DNA of 64,000 bases, taken from contig NZ_CP125295.1 in the NCBI RefSeq assembly GCF_030412785.1, positions 3,906,001 to 3,970,000 of the forward strand. The letters run 5' to 3'. Below the pieces are notes generated by a model that saw only the letters and a list, made by a program, of their open reading frames with translations, did no database searches and was not told where the DNA came from. Positions 22,356-58,618 of the stretch are shown here, piece after piece (the first letter of the stretch is position 1; each line of letters begins with the position of its first letter). This DNA comes from Paraburkholderia sabiae. GTDB lineage: Bacteria > Pseudomonadota > Gammaproteobacteria > Burkholderiales > Burkholderiaceae. The translations under genes and the position numbers were made by a program.

Positions 22356-23294
22356 ATGGGTATTTTTTCGTTCGGCAAGAAAGACGACGCACCTACGCGG
22401 CGCGGCGCAAAATCCAGTTCCAGTCGCGGTAGTCGTGCCGAGCGCGCAGAACGCGCGGAGCGGGTCGAACGGCGCAGCCGTCGCACGGAGCGTTCCGGCG
22501 ACGCCGACGCGATGCTGCTCGACCCCACGCTTCCCGAAAAGCAGCGCGCACGTCGCCGCCTCGTCGGTGCAATCGCGCTGGTGATCGCAGCCGTCGTGAT
22601 TCTCCCGATGGTGCTGGATTCACATCCGAAGCCCGTCACCGACGACATTTCCATCGACATTCCGAACCGTCCCGCGCCGAAAGCGCGTGCGTCTGAAGAC
22701 GCCGACACGCAGGCGGGCGTCGCACCGGACAATCCGGCCGCACCGGAAGCGGCGCTGGCCGCTTCGGGTCTTGCACCCGCAGCATCGGGCGCGGCGGCGA
22801 CGGGCGCCGTTGCTTCCCAGCGCAGCGGCGACAGCAAGAACGCACCCATCGCAATGACCCCGGCGAAGCCGCAGGCACCCGCCGTCGTCGCGAATAACAC
22901 GCCGGCGCAGGCGGCGAAACCCGCCGCGAAGCCGCAACCGGAAACGAAGCCAGCGGCAAAACCGGAACAGAAACCCGCATCGACGCAAGCAACCCAGACG
23001 GCGCAAGCAGCTGCCTCCGGCACTGAAACGGGCACGCCCGCGGCGCCTCCCGGCAGCCGCTTTGCGGTGCAGTTGGGCGCGTTCCAGGACGACGCGAGCG
23101 CGCACACGTGGGCGAACAAGTTGAAAGCGGCGGGCGTGCCCGCATATACGGAGCGTCGCAAGCAGGCTGACGGCTCTACCCGCACCATGTTGCGCGCCGG
23201 TCCGTTCGCGGATCGTGCGGCGGCGTCGGCGGCCATCGCGAAGGTTCGCGAGGCTGGGCTGTCGTCGGGTGCGAACAACGGCACTGCGCAGTAA
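22356..23294 (+). CDS. SPOR-domain cell division protein (DedD-like)
   Basis: A 312-residue bitopic inner-membrane protein. A basic N-terminus rich in Arg and Ser (residues 1-65) is followed by one helix at about 70-87 (VGAIALVIAAVVILPMVL). A long Ala/Pro/Lys linker leads to a C-terminal SPOR domain (about 225-300, FAVQLGAFQDDASAHTWANK and MLRAGPFADRAAASAAIAKV), which binds denuded septal glycan. The folC-SPOR-cvpA-purF order equals folC-dedD-cvpA-purF of E. coli, so a DedD role at the septum is likely. Confidence 0.88.
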   Translation: MGIFSFGKKDDAPTRRGAKSSSSRGSRAERAERAERVERRSRRTERSGDADAMLLDPTLPEKQRARRRLVGAIALVIAAVVILPMVLDSHPKPVTDDISIDIPNRPAPKARASEDADTQAGVAPDNPAAPEAALAASGLAPAASGAAATGAVASQRSGDSKNAPIAMTPAKPQAPAVVANNTPAQAAKPAAKPQPETKPAAKPEQKPASTQATQTAQAAASGTETGTPAAPPGSRFAVQLGAFQDDASAHTWANKLKAAGVPAYTERRKQADGSTRTMLRAGPFADRAAASAAIAKVREAGLSSGANNGTAQ

Positions 23295-23301
23295 TCCGGC
23301 G

Positions 23302-23796
23302 ATGTTCACCGCGTTCGACTACGCTGTAATGGCGGTGATCGGGCTGTCGGCACTGCGCGGCGGCTGGCGCGGCTTTTTGTCCGAGGTGTTCGGACTGATC
23401 GGCTGGGTCGTCGCGTTTCTGGTAGCGGCGCGCTTCGTGGGGCTGCTGGTGCCCTTCGTGCCGTCTAACTGGCCGGGCGGCGCGCTGACGCAGTGGCTGA
23501 TCGCGTTTGCGGCCATCGTCATCGGTGTGATTCTGGTGGCGAGCGTGGCGAACGCGCTATTGAGCCGGCTGGTGCAGGTGTCCGGCCTGGGCGGAGTGGA
23601 CCGCTCGCTTGGACTGATGTTCGGCCTCGTACGCGGGGTCATACTGGTGCTGATTCTGGTCGCCCTCGCTGGCTTGACCGAACTGCCCAAACAGGAATTC
23701 TGGCGCAACGCGCTGCTACGGCCCTACGCCGAGCAGGGCGTGCGAGAGTTGAAGCCTCTGCTTCCCGAAACGCTCGCCGCCTACGTCCACGTGTAA
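23302..23796 (+). CDS. cvpA: CvpA family membrane protein
   Basis: A 164-residue inner-membrane protein with four predicted helices (about residues 3-20, 26-45, 64-85 and 103-124). The N-terminus (TAFDYAVMAVIGLSALRGGWRGFLSE) and GLVRGVILVLIL are typical of CvpA, linked in E. coli to colicin V production and envelope stress. I chose the ATG at 23302, 7 bp after the SPOR gene, because upstream codons overlap that gene and are unlike the family. Confidence 0.9.
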   Translation: MFTAFDYAVMAVIGLSALRGGWRGFLSEVFGLIGWVVAFLVAARFVGLLVPFVPSNWPGGALTQWLIAFAAIVIGVILVASVANALLSRLVQVSGLGGVDRSLGLMFGLVRGVILVLILVALAGLTELPKQEFWRNALLRPYAEQGVRELKPLLPETLAAYVHV

Positions 23797-26851: not shown

Positions 26852-27379
26852 CGCTGGCATCCGCGATTTCGTATCGGTTTGCTAGCGTCGCCCCTGTGCG
26901 GGGCGGCACCTACTTTTCTTTGCAGCGGCAAAGAAAAGTAGGCAAAAGAAAGCCGCTTCAAACCTCCGGTGCCCGCCTGGATAACGCTACGGCATGCGTT
27001 CTTTGAGCTGTGGCGCAGCGACGTCGGCACTCCGTAGAAAGCCCGCAGTCAACCGCGCACGACGAAAAATCCACACACAGTCTGGAGCACAAACCGCCGC
27101 AATTGGACCGAAGGCAAACGGACAAAAGCAAGCCGACCGAATGTGCCCCAAGTGGATGTCAACTTTCGCGCCGCGCGCACCTCACTGCGGGCTTTCTACG
27201 GAGGTTCGCGTTGCTGCGCGACAGCTCAAAGAACGCATGCCGTAGCGTTATCCTGGCAGGCACCGGAGGTTCAAAAGCGGCTTTCTTTGGTTACTTTCTT
27301 TGCCGCGGCAAAGAAAGTAACTGCCGCCCCGCACAGGGGCAACGAGTGAAGCACGGATGCGAATTCGCGGACGCCAGCG
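26852..27379. repeat. Long palindromic repeat element, copy 1
   Basis: A noncoding element of 528 bp made of two inverted arms of about 230-240 bp around an asymmetric centre (about 27083-27140). It begins GCTGGCATCCGCG and ends with the complement CGCGGACGCCAGC. Each arm carries, from the outside in, GCCCCTGTGCGGGGC, a hairpin (left CCTACTTTTCTTTG/CAAAGAAAAGTAGG, right the GTTACTTTCTTTG type), an AAGCCGCTT block, CTCCGGTGCC, a variable block and AAAGCCCGCAGT. Both arms of this copy have the same variable block (CGGCATGCGTTCTTTGAGCT). The similarity extends outward to the GCGAC/GTCGC modules, about 26797-27445. It lies between convergent metZ and araC. Confidence 0.9.
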
Positions 27380-40431: not shown

Positions 40432-40960
40432 CGCTGGCGTCCGCGATTTCGTATCGGTTTGCTGGCGTCGCCCCTGTGCGGGGCGGCACCTACTTTTCTT
40501 TGCAGCGGCAAAGAAAAGTAGGCAAAAGAAAGCCGCTTCACACCTCCGGTGCCCGCCAGGATGGCGCTGCGGCATGCCGCAGTCGAGCCGTCGCGCAGCG
40601 ACGCCCACACTCCGTAGAAAGCCCGCAGTCAATCACGCACGGCGCGAAAAGCCCACACAGTCTGGAGCACCTACCGCCGCGATCAGACGACGGCAAACAC
40701 ACAAAAACAAGCCGACCGAATGTGCTCCAGGTGGATGTCATCTTTCGCGCCGCGCGCGGTTAACTGCGGGCTCTCTACGGAGTGTTGGCGTCGCTGTGCG
40801 ACAGCTCAAGGAGCCTGTGCCGTAGCGGTAAGCTGGCAGGCACCGGAGGTTTGAAGCGGCTTTCTTTTGCCTACTTTTCTTTGCCGCGGCAAAGAAAAGT
40901 AGGTGCCGCCCCGCACAGGGGCGACGCCTGAAGCACCGATACGAAACCGCGGATGCCAGC
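40432..40960. repeat. Long palindromic repeat element, copy 2
   Basis: A 529-bp element in the same orientation as copy 1. Both arms carry the CCTACTTTTCTTTG...CAAAGAAAAGTAGG hairpin. The variable blocks differ between arms (left GCGGCATGCCGCAGTCGAGC; right, read inward, CGGCACAGGCTCCTTGAGCT). The asymmetric centre lies between CTGGAGCAC (about 40663) and TGTGCTCCAG (about 40721). It sits between glgX and glgB in an otherwise compact leftward cluster, so glgX-treZYmalQ may need its own promoter. On its right is a tract of repeated CCAACAG units and A-rich sequence (about 40958-41037). Confidence 0.9.
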
Positions 40961-54061: not shown

Positions 54062-55513
54062 ATGAGCGATCACCTGTCCCGCGCGAAACGGTCGGACGTT
54101 CACGGCGGCAATCTCGACGCAACGGTTTTCTCGTCGAGCCGGCGCGTGGCGCTCAAGAGCCGCCGGCGCATCTGGAGGATGGCGGCGCTCGCGGCGGTGT
54201 TTTCGGTGTTCGCGCTGTATCTCGCGTGGCTCGAAGCGTACGACGCCGAGCCGCATCGCAACGACGAATCGCCGCTCGGCGAAGCCGTCGCGCAGGCCAC
54301 GGCGCCTGCTGCGTCTGGACGCGGCCCGGATCTCGTCAAGCGCGGCGAGTATCTGGCGCGCGCGGGCGACTGCATCGCTTGCCACACGTCGGACAAAGGG
54401 CGTCCATTCGCGGGCGGCCTCGCGATCGCCACGCCGTTCGGCACGATTTATACGCCGAACATCACACCCGATCCGGACACGGGCATCGGCCGCTGGACGG
54501 AAGCGGACTTCATGCGCGCGATGCACGAGGGCATCGGCAAGGAAGGCGAGCGGCTTTATCCGGCGTTTCCGTACGTCGGGTACACGAAGGTCACCGATCA
54601 GGACGTGCAGGCGATCCGCGCGTATCTGAACACGGTGGTGCCCGTGCATTACACGCCGCCGTCGAACGACTTGCGCTTCCCGTTCAACCAGCGCTGGCTG
54701 ATGGTCTTGTGGAACCTGTTCAACTTCGACGAAGGGCGTTTCTTGCCCGATCCGAAGCAGAGTGCCGAATGGAATCGCGGCGCGTATCTCGTCGAAGGTC
54801 TTGCGCATTGCGAGGAGTGCCATACACCGCGCAACTTCATGCAGGGCCTGAAAACCAGCGAACGATTCTCAGGCGCGATCCAGGCCGGCTGGCATGCGTA
54901 CAACATCACGCCGCACAAGACGAGCGGCATCGGCGACTGGTCGGAACAGGATGTCGTCAGTTACCTGTCGACGGGCGTCGCGCATGGGCGCGCCAATGCG
55001 GCCGGACCGATGGCCGATGTCGTTTCCGATAGCACGCAGTATTTGAATCGCGAAGATCTGCGTTCGATCGCGACGTATTTGCGGTCGATCAAGCCTGTCG
55101 ATCGGGGTGAATCGAGGATGCGTGCTGCATGGGGTTCGCCTGCCAGCGATGTCGATGCGATGCGGGGTACTCGGGTTAGCGGCGTCAATGGTGCGCAGCT
55201 TTTTCTCGCTAATTGTGCTTCCTGTCATCACTGGACTGGGGAAGGTGTCGGCGCTAGCTCGCCGGGTGCTTATCCTGCTCTGCTGCATAACAGTGTTGTT
55301 GGGGCTAGTGATGCTAATAATCTCGCGATGGTGATTTTGCACGGTGTGCGGCGTACGACTCAGGATGCTGATGTTTTGATGCCTGGGTTTGAGCGTGATT
55401 TGAATGATGAGCAAATTGCTGCTCTCGCTAACTATGTGACCGGGCAGTTTGGGAATCCGCGGGCTCGGGTTAGTGCCGACGAGGTCGGGAGGTTGAGGGG
55501 TTTGACGCCCTGA
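54062..55513 (+). CDS. Triheme cytochrome c subunit of the sugar dehydrogenase
   Basis: A 483-residue membrane-anchored cytochrome. It has three CxxCH haem sites: CIACH (about residue 103), CEECH (about 250) and CASCH (about 385). A 36-residue basic cytoplasmic N-terminus and one helix (about 40-57, MAALAAVFSVFALYLAWL) replace the cleaved signal usual for this subunit. It starts 2 bp after the alpha subunit and would pass electrons to quinone or oxidase. The last 103 codons contain 50 ending in T, against about 12 in the first 103. The change faces palindrome copy 3 and lies within an intact reading frame. Confidence 0.92.
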   Translation: MSDHLSRAKRSDVHGGNLDATVFSSSRRVALKSRRRIWRMAALAAVFSVFALYLAWLEAYDAEPHRNDESPLGEAVAQATAPAASGRGPDLVKRGEYLARAGDCIACHTSDKGRPFAGGLAIATPFGTIYTPNITPDPDTGIGRWTEADFMRAMHEGIGKEGERLYPAFPYVGYTKVTDQDVQAIRAYLNTVVPVHYTPPSNDLRFPFNQRWLMVLWNLFNFDEGRFLPDPKQSAEWNRGAYLVEGLAHCEECHTPRNFMQGLKTSERFSGAIQAGWHAYNITPHKTSGIGDWSEQDVVSYLSTGVAHGRANAAGPMADVVSDSTQYLNREDLRSIATYLRSIKPVDRGESRMRAAWGSPASDVDAMRGTRVSGVNGAQLFLANCASCHHWTGEGVGASSPGAYPALLHNSVVGASDANNLAMVILHGVRRTTQDADVLMPGFERDLNDEQIAALANYVTGQFGNPRARVSADEVGRLRGLTP

Positions 55514-55560
55514 GTCATGGCTATTGCTTTGCTTTGCTTTGCTTTGGTTTGATTTGCTGT

Positions 55561-56078
55561 GGCATCCGCGAATTCGTATCGGTTTATTAGCGTTGCCCCT
55601 GTGCGGGGCGGCAGTTACTTTCTTTGCCGCGGCAAAGAAAGTAACCAAAGAAAGCCGCTTTTAAACCTACGGTGCCTGCCAGGATAACGCCACGGCACAG
55701 GTTCCTTGAGCTGTCGCACAGCGACGCCAATACTCCGTAGAAAGCCCGCAGTTAACCGCGCGCGGAGCGAAAGATGACATCCACCTGGAGCACATTCGGT
55801 CGGCACGTTTTTTTTGCATTTGCCCTCGGTTGATTGCGGCGGTATGTGCTCCAGACTGTGTGGGCTTTTCGCGCCGTGCGCGCTTGACTGCGGGCTTTCT
55901 ACAGAGTGCGGACGTCGCTGCGCGACGGCTCAACTGCGGCATGCCGCAGCGCCATCCTGGCGGGCACCGGAGGTTCAAAAGCGGCTTTCTTTGGTTACTT
56001 TCTTTGCCGCGGCAAAGAAAGTAACTGCCGCCCCGCACAGGGGCAACGCTAGCGAACCGATACGAATTCGCGGATGCC
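55561..56078. repeat. Long palindromic repeat element, copy 3 (inverted)
   Basis: A 518-bp element whose asymmetric centre reads in the opposite direction to copies 1 and 2. The segment with TGGATGTCA/CACATTCGGTCGG is on the left and the CACAGTCTGGAGCAC side is on the right. Both arms carry the GTTACTTTCTTTG...CAAAGAAAGTAAC hairpin. The variable blocks are CGGCACAGGTTCCTTGAGCT (left arm) and GCGGCATGCCGCAGTTGAGC (right arm, read inward), the same pairing as in copy 2 once orientation is allowed for. It lies between the cytochrome gene and the phosphatase. A TTTGC-repeat tract (about 55525-55557) borders it on the left. Confidence 0.9.
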
Positions 56079-56233
56079 GGCGAAGTGACAATTCGCGAAC
56101 CCCATCAACCTGACCTGCGAACAAAAATCAAAACGCCGCTGCAAGCAAAACCAAACCCAAAACACTAACGAACGGCCTAGAAACGCGAGATGCCCCGCAT
56201 ACAGGGCATCCCCACCCGCACTATCATGCTGTT

Positions 56234-56971
56234 ATGGATTCCACACTTGTCACCGTCGTCGAACATCATCCCTTCAACCGCGCGGGACGCGACTTCGTCA
56301 TCGGCGATCTGCACGGTTGTCTCGACGCGCTCCGCTTCCTGCTACGCGAAATCGAATTCGATCCGTCGCGCGACCGGCTGTTTTCGGTCGGCGATCTCGT
56401 CGATCGTGGTTCGCAGTCGGAAGAAGCCCTCGCGTTGCTCGACAAGCCCTGGTTCCATGCCGTGCTCGGCAATCACGAGGACACGCTCTGCGCGGTTGCC
56501 GAAGGCAAGCTCAAGAAGCAGTGGTGGTACGGCATCGGCGGATTGTGGAGCGCGCATCTGCCGGCCGAAAAGCTGCAATCCTATGCGCAGCGGCTGCGCG
56601 CGCTGCCGCTCGTGCGCGTGATCGGCTCGGGCAGCCAGCGCTTCAACGTGCTGCACGCCGAGTTTCTCGGCACGGACGCCGACCTCGACGCCGACGATTT
56701 TTCCGCGGAAACACGCCAGCAACTGCTGTGGGGCCGCAGCCTCGCCATGGGCACGGGCGATCCGATGTCCCAACTCGGCCTGTCGCTGACCTATTGCGGT
56801 CACACGCCGATGCGCGAGGTCCAGCAGATCGGCGCGCAGGTGTTCATCGATACGGGCGCGTTCGGTCCCGGCGGCAAGCTGACGATCGTCGAGGCCCACA
56901 CGACGAATCGCTGGTCGGTCACGGTCGACGTGGCGCGCTCGGTCGGCGCTGCGGCGCTCGCGCTGCCGTAG
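56234..56971 (+). CDS. PPP-family metallophosphatase (serine/threonine phosphatase type)
   Basis: A 245-residue calcineurin-like phosphatase close to the bacterial PrpA/PrpB and lambda phosphatase group. The three metal/phosphate signatures are complete: FVIGDLHGCLDAL (residues 20-32), FSVGDLVDRGSQSEE (about 50-64) and AVLGNHEDTL (about 75-84). YCGHTPMREVQ supplies a C-terminal metal histidine. It may act on phosphoproteins or dinucleotides; the substrate is not visible. It has no signal peptide. Its 5' flank is the A+C-rich side of palindrome copy 3. Confidence 0.9.
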   Translation: MDSTLVTVVEHHPFNRAGRDFVIGDLHGCLDALRFLLREIEFDPSRDRLFSVGDLVDRGSQSEEALALLDKPWFHAVLGNHEDTLCAVAEGKLKKQWWYGIGGLWSAHLPAEKLQSYAQRLRALPLVRVIGSGSQRFNVLHAEFLGTDADLDADDFSAETRQQLLWGRSLAMGTGDPMSQLGLSLTYCGHTPMREVQQIGAQVFIDTGAFGPGGKLTIVEAHTTNRWSVTVDVARSVGAAALALP

Positions 56972-57693: not shown

Positions 57694-58127
57694 GCCCAGC
57701 CGCCTCGCATTGCGTCGAGATACTGGCGCACGGCCACGAGGTCGCTGATGTTGCCCGCCAGCATGCGGTCGAGCGCGCGGCGGCCGCCGAACGGCGGCGC
57801 GCTGTTGGGACGCTTGACCCAGGTATCTGCGGCGGCGGGTTGCGGCAGCAGGATTTGCAGTGCCTTATAGATGCCGAGCAGAAGCGACAGACGCTCCAGC
57901 GTGTCGCGTCCGAGGCGTGCCGTTTGCGGCTCCTGCTTCCATTTGAAGAACGTGGAACGGCCAGGCGAGCCGAGCAGGATGATCTGCTCTTCGGTGCTCA
58001 GTTCCCAGTCGCGGGCGATGTTGAAGAACGCGCGCAGACCGGCGGCGGACATGTCCGCCATCGAAGGTTCGGCGGAAGGGCGTCGCAACGGTCGTTCAGC
58101 GCTCGAATAGTGCGCGGCGGAAGACAT
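57690..58127 (-). CDS. Xre/MbcA/ParS-type antitoxin
   Basis: A 145-residue partner of the RES toxin. The N-terminal half is an Xre-like helix-turn-helix (about residues 28-80: GLRAFFNIARDWELSTEEQI, LGSPGRSTFFKWKQE). The C-terminal half is the MbcA/ParS toxin-binding domain (PNSAPPFGGRRALDRMLAG, then VAVRQYLDAMRGGWA). AGGA lies 8 bp before the ATG. A short AT-rich dyad upstream (58157-58172) may be its operator. Confidence 0.92.
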   Translation of the reverse strand: MSSAAHYSSAERPLRRPSAEPSMADMSAAGLRAFFNIARDWELSTEEQIILLGSPGRSTFFKWKQEPQTARLGRDTLERLSLLLGIYKALQILLPQPAAADTWVKRPNSAPPFGGRRALDRMLAGNISDLVAVRQYLDAMRGGWA

Positions 58128-58156
58128 GATCTGAGTCCTGTTTTGAACTTTTTATG

Positions 58157-58172
58157 CATATTAGTCTATATG
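58157..58172. promoter_or_regulatory. Dyad upstream of the RES/Xre pair, candidate operator
   Basis: CATAT-TAGTCT-ATATG, an AT-rich dyad 30 bp upstream of the antitoxin start, is in the expected place for autorepression by the Xre protein. It also lies ahead of the rightward gene at 58232. Confidence 0.4.
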
Positions 58173-58194
58173 TGGATTATTGCAAGTACGCCTG

Positions 58195-58200
58195 TATAAT
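58195..58200 (+). promoter_or_regulatory. TATAAT -10 box for the gene at 58232
   Basis: A perfect TATAAT 31 bp ahead of the GTG start. No good -35 hexamer stands at 16-18 bp. Confidence 0.45.
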
Positions 58201-58231
58201 TCGCGCCTCGAGTTTTTGCACGGAGACTGCG

Positions 58232-58618
58232 GTGTCGCTGCGTTCGAAGGTGTGGTTGACGGTAGGTTTGCTGGGCGCGTCGATGGCGGCGCACGCGGAG
58301 TACAAGGAAGTGTGGAATCCGCCCGAGGCGACGCGCGGCGCGACGCACGCTCACGCTCACGCTCATCCGGCGAAGGTGGCGCCGGCTAAGCACGTCGCGT
58401 CCGTGAAGGCGAAACCGACGGCGAAAAAGCCGCATGGCGTCGCAGTGAAAGCGACGCACGCGACGCACACGCCGCACACGGCAAGCGCCAAGGTCGCGCA
58501 TGCAAAGCCTGTCGAAGCGGCGGCGAAACCTCAACGGGTCGCTGCGAGTCCAGCCGTTCAGCCCGGCACCAGCGGCAACCACGCAACACCGCGCGAACTG
58601 CCGCCCATCCTTCACTAA
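58232..58618 (+). CDS. Small exported His/Ala/Lys-rich protein of unknown function
   Basis: A 128-residue protein I do not recognise. A clear Sec signal peptide (MSLRSKVWLTVGLLGASMAAHA, given here as residues 1-22) would leave a mature chain starting EYKEVWNPPEATRG. The rest is low complexity, rich in Ala, His, Lys, Thr and Val, with THAHAHAHPAK near residue 40 and repeated KATHATHT-type units. Histidine clusters suggest metal binding, but this is a guess. The GTG at 58232, with GGAG at 6 bp, is a better start than upstream in-frame codons. Confidence 0.75.
   Translation: MSLRSKVWLTVGLLGASMAAHAEYKEVWNPPEATRGATHAHAHAHPAKVAPAKHVASVKAKPTAKKPHGVAVKATHATHTPHTASAKVAHAKPVEAAAKPQRVAASPAVQPGTSGNHATPRELPPILH

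What the first reader, a model, noticed from the sequence alone, without database searches (positions are those of the whole stretch)
55100..56230. Strand-composition flip centred on palindrome copy 3, with T-ending codons in the cytochrome 3' end
On the + strand the left flank is G+T-rich (55381-55500: G47 T30 C22 A21) and the right flank A+C-rich (56101-56160: A26 C22 G7 T5). In the cytochrome gene 50 of the last 103 codons end in T, against about 12 of the first 103, within one intact frame. In both flanks the strand whose 3' end points at the element is enriched in G and T. That is what C-to-T and A-to-G changes in 3' single-stranded tails would leave if breaks at the palindrome were resected repeatedly. 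The pattern is direct; the mechanism is inference.
Basis: partly seen in the sequence, partly recalled or inferred. Interest (0 to 1): 0.85.

Follow-up and report, generated by a model that had tools for sequence, protein, structure and literature searches.

The report
Strand-biased mutation scars around DNA palindromes
A long DNA palindrome that is repeated about a hundred times in this soil bacterium is flanked on both sides by about half a kilobase in which one particular strand has lost C and gained T, probably because that strand is repeatedly left single-stranded and damaged; related species show the same beside their palindromes, and the same genes without a palindrome do not.

Summary
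The element (55561-56078) is a ~518-bp imperfect palindrome. At all 30 copies first profiled, and on 39 of 39 flank sides of a diverged version in a second genus, the strand pointing 3' at the element is G+T-rich; the skew fades within ~1.5 kb. It is mirrored in genes read toward and away from the element and does not depend on replication direction. It needs the element: of 80 cytochrome orthologues, the one with an element is skewed and the 79 without are not. Changes on that strand are C>T, G>T and C>G; G>A and C>A stay flat. Recent strain differences still show the bias, though weakly beyond 150 bp. Element interiors evolve in concert within a genome and carry a gene-conversion signature. 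Best reading: recurrent breakage (or blocked synthesis) at the palindrome, resolved by recombination, exposes the 3'-ended flank strand, which takes single-strand damage. The break itself is inferred, gaps at stalled polymerases are not excluded, and canonical SbcD was not found in this genome.

The parts
55561..56078 (.). element copy 3: ~518-bp imperfect palindrome (arms 55561-55697/55942-56078, 93%; 55706-55772/55867-55933, 84%)
55614..55645 (.). perfect 32-bp palindrome in the left arm
55994..56025 (.). perfect 32-bp palindrome in the right arm
55000..55560 (+). left halo: + strand G+T-rich (end of the cytochrome gene and 55514-55560)
56079..56233 (-). right halo: + strand A+C-rich, i.e. 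- strand G+T-rich
54062..55513 (+). cytochrome c gene read toward the element; T-ending codons in its 3' third
56234..56971 (+). calcineurin-like phosphoesterase gene read away from the element; coding part not skewed
26856..27375 (.). element copy 1, same halo on both sides
40436..40957 (.). element copy 2, same halo on both sides

Best explanation
The element is a resident long palindrome that repeatedly breaks, or blocks synthesis hard enough to start recombination. In each event the flanking strand whose 3' end points at the element is left single-stranded for up to ~0.5-1 kb on either side (resected 3' tails). Single-stranded C is deaminated (C>T, and C>G through abasic sites) and G is oxidised (G>T); some lesions are fixed when the strand is filled in. 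The element is restored by copying a sister or another genomic copy, which homogenises its interior and wipes out bias there. SHOWN: halo geometry, need for the element, independence of transcription and fork direction, strand-specific spectrum, bias in recent changes, concerted evolution with a gene-conversion signature. INFERRED: that exposure comes from double-strand breaks and resection; that the lesions are deamination and oxidation; which enzyme acts.
For: Halo at 30 of 30 copies on both sides at 0-100 bp and on 39 of 39 sides in a second genus. Mirror image in genes read away: third-position A 0.37 vs 0.08 background and G 0.15 vs 0.37. Same flank skew with respect to fork direction at 0-300 bp, difference 0.006+-0.021. 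79 cytochrome orthologues without element not skewed, one with element skewed; other gene tails 0.188 with (35) vs 0.031 without (29). Third positions near vs far: C>T 0.52/0.14, G>T 0.27/0.014, G>A 0.02/0.05, C>A 0.01/0.03, and no such bias in element-free lineages. Recent differences within 600 bp: C>T over G>A 2.3-fold, G>T over C>A 4.0-fold; at 1-2.5 kb 0.97 and 0.88. Same-site elements of two species 38-49% identical, different sites within a genome 86% and 78%; 432 of 738 recent changes inside elements are bases common in other copies, 197 expected. Yeast precedent: PMC3681665, passages seen.
Against: No break was observed. Canonical SbcD was not found here (best hit 51 bits, cut-off 77.65) nor in 73 of 81 element-bearing genomes. 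Skew does not follow palindrome strength. Total recent change is raised only within 150 bp; without those 150 bp C>T/G>A is 2.06 (p 0.016) and G>T/C>A 1.8, not significant. Skew in genes read away is about half that in genes read toward at 200-500 bp, and the right-hand gene of this very locus has none. No strand bias is left inside the element, which needs the added assumption of conversion.
Confidence: 0.58

Rival explanations
1. Replication gaps without breaks: hairpins on either template block the polymerase, and the template 5' of the hairpin (the same strand in the same flanks) stays single-stranded until it is filled in; gap repair causes the conversion.
For: Same geometry as resected tails; a halo of a few hundred bp is of gap size; canonical SbcD, which would cut hairpins, was not found here.
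Against: The lagging-template version predicts a halo mainly on the ori-proximal side. Proximal minus distal is 0.006+-0.021 at 0-300 bp and 0.026-0.033 beyond 2 kb, the ordinary background; one bin (600-1200 bp, 0.049+-0.013) is slightly higher. Uncorrected, 500-800 and 800-1200 bp differ at p 0.024 and 0.006.
Confidence: 0.2
2. A trans-acting nuclease or transposase cuts at the element ends or at the 32-bp palindromes; the flanks are resected and the element is copied back from another site (excision and gap repair, or homing).
For: The bias starts at the element boundary and is absent inside; ends are conserved while the middle differs between species at the same site; each element carries two perfect 32-bp palindromes.
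Against: No candidate enzyme found. The one IS200-like (Y1) protein of the genome has no element within 1.5 kb. Sites are long-lived rather than mobile: most tested tails share the element with G398.
Confidence: 0.12
3. Selection for G+T-rich, Chi-like or RecA-favoured sequence in the orientation that helps repair of breaks at the element.
For: The polarity is that of Chi: GCTGGTGG 8 inward, 0 outward within 1 kb of 40 copies; 9 and 8 further away.
Against: Eight is about what the base composition alone gives (my estimate, 6-7). G>T, which selection for G+T would not favour, is up about 20-fold, while recent A>G is not raised. Amino-acid-changing sites also change faster.
Confidence: 0.06
4. 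Transcription: the coding strand is exposed in R-loops at gene ends, or gene ends have this codon use anyway.
For: 61 of 80 sides have a gene read toward the element by my gene calls; beyond 200 bp the skew is about twice as strong there.
Against: Genes read away carry the mirror-image change and the first 200 bp are equal on both kinds of side; 104 gene ends with no element within 1.5 kb average 0.021+-0.075.
Confidence: 0.03

Closest known systems
Inverted-repeat-induced mutagenesis in yeast (PMC3681665; passages seen)
   Same: Long inverted repeats break; mutations rise on both sides; resection and single strands are implicated; repair restores the repeat, making it a lasting source of mutations
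   Different: Engineered repeats in yeast, mutations up to 8 kb away; here natural, in about a hundred copies per genome, an evolutionary footprint of ~0.5-1 kb in bacteria with strand polarity, plus concerted evolution
REP/BIME-type extragenic palindromes (PMC3733652; search for terms in the text)
   Same: Many palindromic copies between genes, often at gene ends
   Different: Those are 20-40 bp units; this is ~520-650 bp; the paper's main text does not mention Burkholderia or Ralstonia; no flank mutation halo is described in the passage seen
Palindrome cleavage by SbcCD and RecBCD/RecA repair in E. coli (recalled; search listing only)
   Same: Two-ended break at a long palindrome with 3' tails would give this geometry
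   Different: Canonical SbcD was not found in this genome; no break has been shown
Rfam RF02421 Bp1_684 (Burkholderia sRNA candidate)
   Same: Both ends of the element match, pointing outward, mainly through the GCCCCGC...GGGGC hairpin
   Different: 43.0 and 35.4 bits, below the gathering score of 44; the family describes neither the palindrome nor the halo

Membership tests
Break-induced 3'-tail mutagenesis at inverted repeats | mutation bias on both sides, on the strand with its 3' end at the break | tested here: met
Break-induced 3'-tail mutagenesis at inverted repeats | depends on the presence of the repeat | tested here: met
Break-induced 3'-tail mutagenesis at inverted repeats | single-strand damage spectrum on one strand only | tested here: met
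   C>T and G>T up, G>A and C>A flat; modest in recent changes
Break-induced 3'-tail mutagenesis at inverted repeats | double-strand breaks and resection at the repeat | not testable with these tools
   needs break and ssDNA mapping
REP/BIME | 20-40 bp palindromic units | tested here: not met
   518-bp inverted repeat with two inner 32-bp palindromes
REP/BIME | associated RAYT (Y1) transposase flanked by the repeats | tested here: not met
   one Y1 protein in the genome, no element within 1.5 kb
MITE / insertion sequence | terminal inverted repeats with target-site duplication and an autonomous relative | tested here: inconclusive
   inverted ends present; target duplication not tested; the longer copies read carry an IS481-type insert rather than being an autonomous form
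Rfam RF02421 | score at or above the gathering threshold of 44 bits | tested here: not met
   43.0 and 35.4 bits

The most novel reading that the evidence does not exclude
Resident palindromes in Paraburkholderia and Caballeronia are permanent recombination sites that keep themselves alike by gene conversion and, as a by-product, continually rewrite one strand of the neighbouring ~0.5 kb, changing codon use and C-terminal protein sequence of many genes: a natural, genome-wide record of single-stranded 3' tails in bacterial DNA.
Probability: 0.45. Interest if true: 0.9.

Novelty: new variant of a known kind. Interest (0 to 1): 0.86.

Why it matters
Where, and how far, bacterial DNA is single-stranded in vivo is normally inferred from engineered breaks. 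Here evolution seems to have recorded it at many natural sites in two genera, with polarity, length and damage spectrum readable from sequence. It makes several questions directly testable: how long palindromes are tolerated where canonical SbcD is missing, what processes them, how far 3' tails or gaps reach, and how many oddly coded gene ends are mutational rather than selected.

Tried and rejected
Transcription as the cause: rejected by the mirror image in genes read away. Replication direction: no difference at 0-300 bp. Ordinary gene-end composition: 104 gene ends with no element within 1.5 kb average 0.021; of five control ends above 0.18, three sit beside other elements. Chi enrichment: no more than composition gives (expectation is my own estimate). 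Palindrome strength against skew: no correlation. Autonomous 1.8-kb form: the copies read carry an IS481-type insertion in the palindrome. SbcD loss as the condition for the element: in the second genus SbcD is over the cut-off in 3 of 38 genomes with and 14 of 20 without the palindrome core (Fisher 1.7e-6, relatedness not corrected), but in the window's genus in 5 of 41 and 1 of 19, so it is not a rule.

Results against the reading: recent total change is not raised at 150-600 bp and recent A>G is not raised. Two relatives (L225, L227) have an element hit 223 and 180 bp after the stop but tail skew 0.03; two element-free relatives (L252, L254) have 0.17, where the gene is G+T-rich further upstream too. 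Of 118 properly anchored sides in three strains, 4 are not positive at 0-300 bp (one search counted 115 of 120 including two mis-anchored sides).

Rows dropped or limited: one search scored 40 of 180 candidates, so 40 full-length copies were studied with 6-kb flanks and the others were not profiled. One search kept the best 80 of 110 loci. One search used 10 of 16 gene tails (those with at least two element-free relatives), dropped element-free relatives with tail skew of 0.13 or more, and dropped sites where they disagreed; for most of these genes the element-free genomes are a proxy for the ancestor, not a rooted tree. One search used 30 of 40 sides. Gene calls in this genome are my own, by codon usage.

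Full report
1. What was claimed and whether it is there. The element is 55561-56078: outer arms of 137 nt at 93% complementarity, inner arms of 67 nt at 84%, and a perfect 32-bp palindrome in each arm. As single-stranded DNA it folds to -253 kcal/mol against -106+-5 for shuffles. The window holds three such elements and nearly all of its strongest skews lie beside them. The exceptions are 22.8-23.6 kb, two adjacent genes of unusual amino-acid composition, and a window at 58.1-58.3 kb that was not followed up.

2. It belongs to the element, not to this locus. The genome (9.9 Mb, 4 contigs) has 238 hits of the palindrome core, two per complete element, and 107 hits per strand of an end pattern, so roughly 100-120 elements. 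In the 30 best-matching copies the left flank is +0.41 and the right flank -0.45 (G+T minus A+C) at 0-100 bp, fading to about zero by 1.5 kb; at 0-100 bp all 30 are positive on the left and negative on the right. In genes read toward 40 copies, T/(T+C) at third positions falls from 0.75 to about 0.2 with a midpoint near 390 bp. The core was found in 81 of 398 genomes of the family, in 4 of 25 genera and almost entirely in two; matching records in the plasmid collection are Paraburkholderia (9) and Caballeronia (5), which is my basis for naming those two genera. Twenty loci from eight genomes of the second genus, with a diverged element, are skewed on 39 of 39 sides at 0-200 bp. In three strains of the P. 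largidicola group 114 of 118 sides are positive at 0-300 bp.

3. What it does not depend on. Gene calls are my own. At 0-100 and 100-200 bp the skew is the same on sides with a gene read toward (53 sides: 0.438, 0.260) and away (13 sides: 0.438, 0.262); at 200-500 bp it is 0.23-0.19 against 0.12-0.10. At third positions within 150 bp, toward genes have T 0.41 and C 0.14 (background 0.12 and 0.43; 1429 codons); away genes have A 0.37 and G 0.15 (background 0.08 and 0.37; 230 codons), the mirror image on the other strand. Thirty-five chromosome copies were given a fork direction from local GC skew: ori-proximal minus distal is 0.006+-0.021 at 0-300 bp and 0.026-0.033 beyond 2 kb, the ordinary background; the 600-1200 bp bin (0.049+-0.013) is slightly higher.

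4. It needs the element. Of the best 80 cytochrome orthologues in species genomes, one (Paraburkholderia sp. Tr-20389) has an element after the stop and a skewed tail (0.21; T in 32 of 103 codons). The 79 without average -0.03+-0.03, maximum 0.04, with 13 of 103. For 15 other gene tails, 60 stretches from five relatives were fetched: with an element hit within 1 kb 0.188+-0.093 (35 comparisons), without 0.031+-0.076 (29), this genome 0.239. Within single genes the contrast is sharper, for example 0.16 and 0.16 with, -0.10, -0.10 and -0.09 without (gene L076L).

5. What changes. In the cytochrome tail (codons 320-483), at sites where at least 80% of six element-free relatives agree: C>T 40 of 134, C>G 13 of 134, G>T 13 of 147, A>G 7 of 76; in the body C>T 17 of 271. 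Over 10 genes at third positions, from 0-150 to 600-900 bp before the stop: C>T 0.52 to 0.14; G>T 0.27 to 0.014; C>G 0.22 to 0.09; G>A 0.02 to 0.05; C>A 0.01 to 0.03; A>G 0.60 to 0.40 on few sites. Positions 1+2 change at 0.120 near and 0.024 far. In element-free lineages of 7 of these genes positions 1+2 change at 0.010 and 0.006, and C>T and G>A are alike. C and G lesions on one strand are what deamination and oxidation of single-stranded DNA would leave (general knowledge; the assignment is inference).

6. It is still going on, modestly. Among three strains (98.5-98.6% identical at one 6.65-kb locus), derived singletons within 600 bp show C>T over G>A 2.3-fold (40/12300 vs 27/19209, p 6.5e-4) and G>T over C>A 4.0-fold (25/19209 vs 4/12300, p 4e-3); at 1-2.5 kb the ratios are 0.97 and 0.88. 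Without the first 150 bp C>T/G>A is 2.06 (p 0.016) and G>T/C>A 1.8, not significant. Total recent change is raised only within 150 bp (7.6 against 4.4 per thousand far away). C>T (40) and T>C (38) are now balanced within 600 bp, as expected if composition there is near equilibrium.

7. The element recombines. At 13 gene tails with an element both here and in G398 (12 distinct elements), same-site elements are 38-49% identical counting gaps, whereas different sites within one genome average 86% (here) and 78% (G398). Only the ends match in the blast search, so the middle is genome-specific. Relatives' elements are mostly palindromic too (arm identity 0.57-0.77 against 0.50-0.58 shuffled; lowest at the two sites where the element is 752 bp). 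Between strains, element interiors (16 of 20 loci) change at 23.6 per thousand against 4.4 far away, and 432 of 738 derived bases are present in at least 20% of other copies, 197 expected at random. That is concerted evolution by gene conversion. Inside the element of this genome no consistent strand bias is left.

8. Mechanism. Recurrent events in the palindrome that expose the strand running 5'->3' into it, on both sides, and that are resolved by recombination, explain these facts with one cause. Double-strand breaks with resected 3' tails are the simplest form and have a precedent in yeast, where inverted-repeat breaks cause mutation on both sides and repair restores the repeat (PMC3681665, passages seen). 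A blocked polymerase that leaves a gap 5' of a hairpin has the same geometry; equal flanks with respect to fork direction argue against a lagging-strand-only version. The nuclease is open: SbcD over the cut-off is absent here and from 73 of the 81 genomes with the core (many are drafts). The best SbcD-like hit here is a 387-aa phosphoesterase next to an ATPase-like frame; calling them an Mre11/Rad50-like pair is recall.

9. Literature. No description of this element or of such a halo in bacteria turned up in eight searches of the held library; nothing outside that library was searched. Two further papers were searched for terms only (PMC3521395, no hit; PMC3733652).

Noticed in passing
L046:2480-3750 and L048; similar end-pair spacing (1786-1789 bp) at G000:C1 ~965, 2415, 4572 and 5008 kb: An IS481-type insertion sequence (LZ_Tnp_IS481 and rve domains) sits inside the palindrome near one end; six end pairs in the first listed matches have that spacing, two were read.
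   Followed up: partly
G000:C1 (6.58 Mb): Sampled GC skew changes sign about four times along C1 (positive 0.4-1.8 Mb, negative 2.8-3.5, positive 3.8-4.6, negative 5.2-5.9), as if two replicons were fused or misjoined.
   Followed up: no
element flanks, e.g. L018-L020, L026, L027: Between many gene stops and the element lies a T run with a short inverted repeat (GTCTGCGACGCTAGTCGCC) and TTTTGC-type repeats, possibly a terminator and slippage products.
   Followed up: no
window 55495-55624 (-) and 56015-56151 (+): Rfam RF02421 Bp1_684 matches both element ends pointing outward, just under and below its gathering score.
   Followed up: partly
window 22356-23796: A reverse composition flip comes from two adjacent proteins of unusual composition, one A/K/P/Q-rich and one hydrophobic.
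   Followed up: yes
window 58101-58300: A G+T-rich stretch 2.1 kb from the element, without an element beside it.
   Followed up: no
G296 (genus g3): The only g3 genome with a core hit is also the only one of the 14 g3 genomes tested that lacks SbcD over the cut-off; it was chosen for its hit.
   Followed up: no
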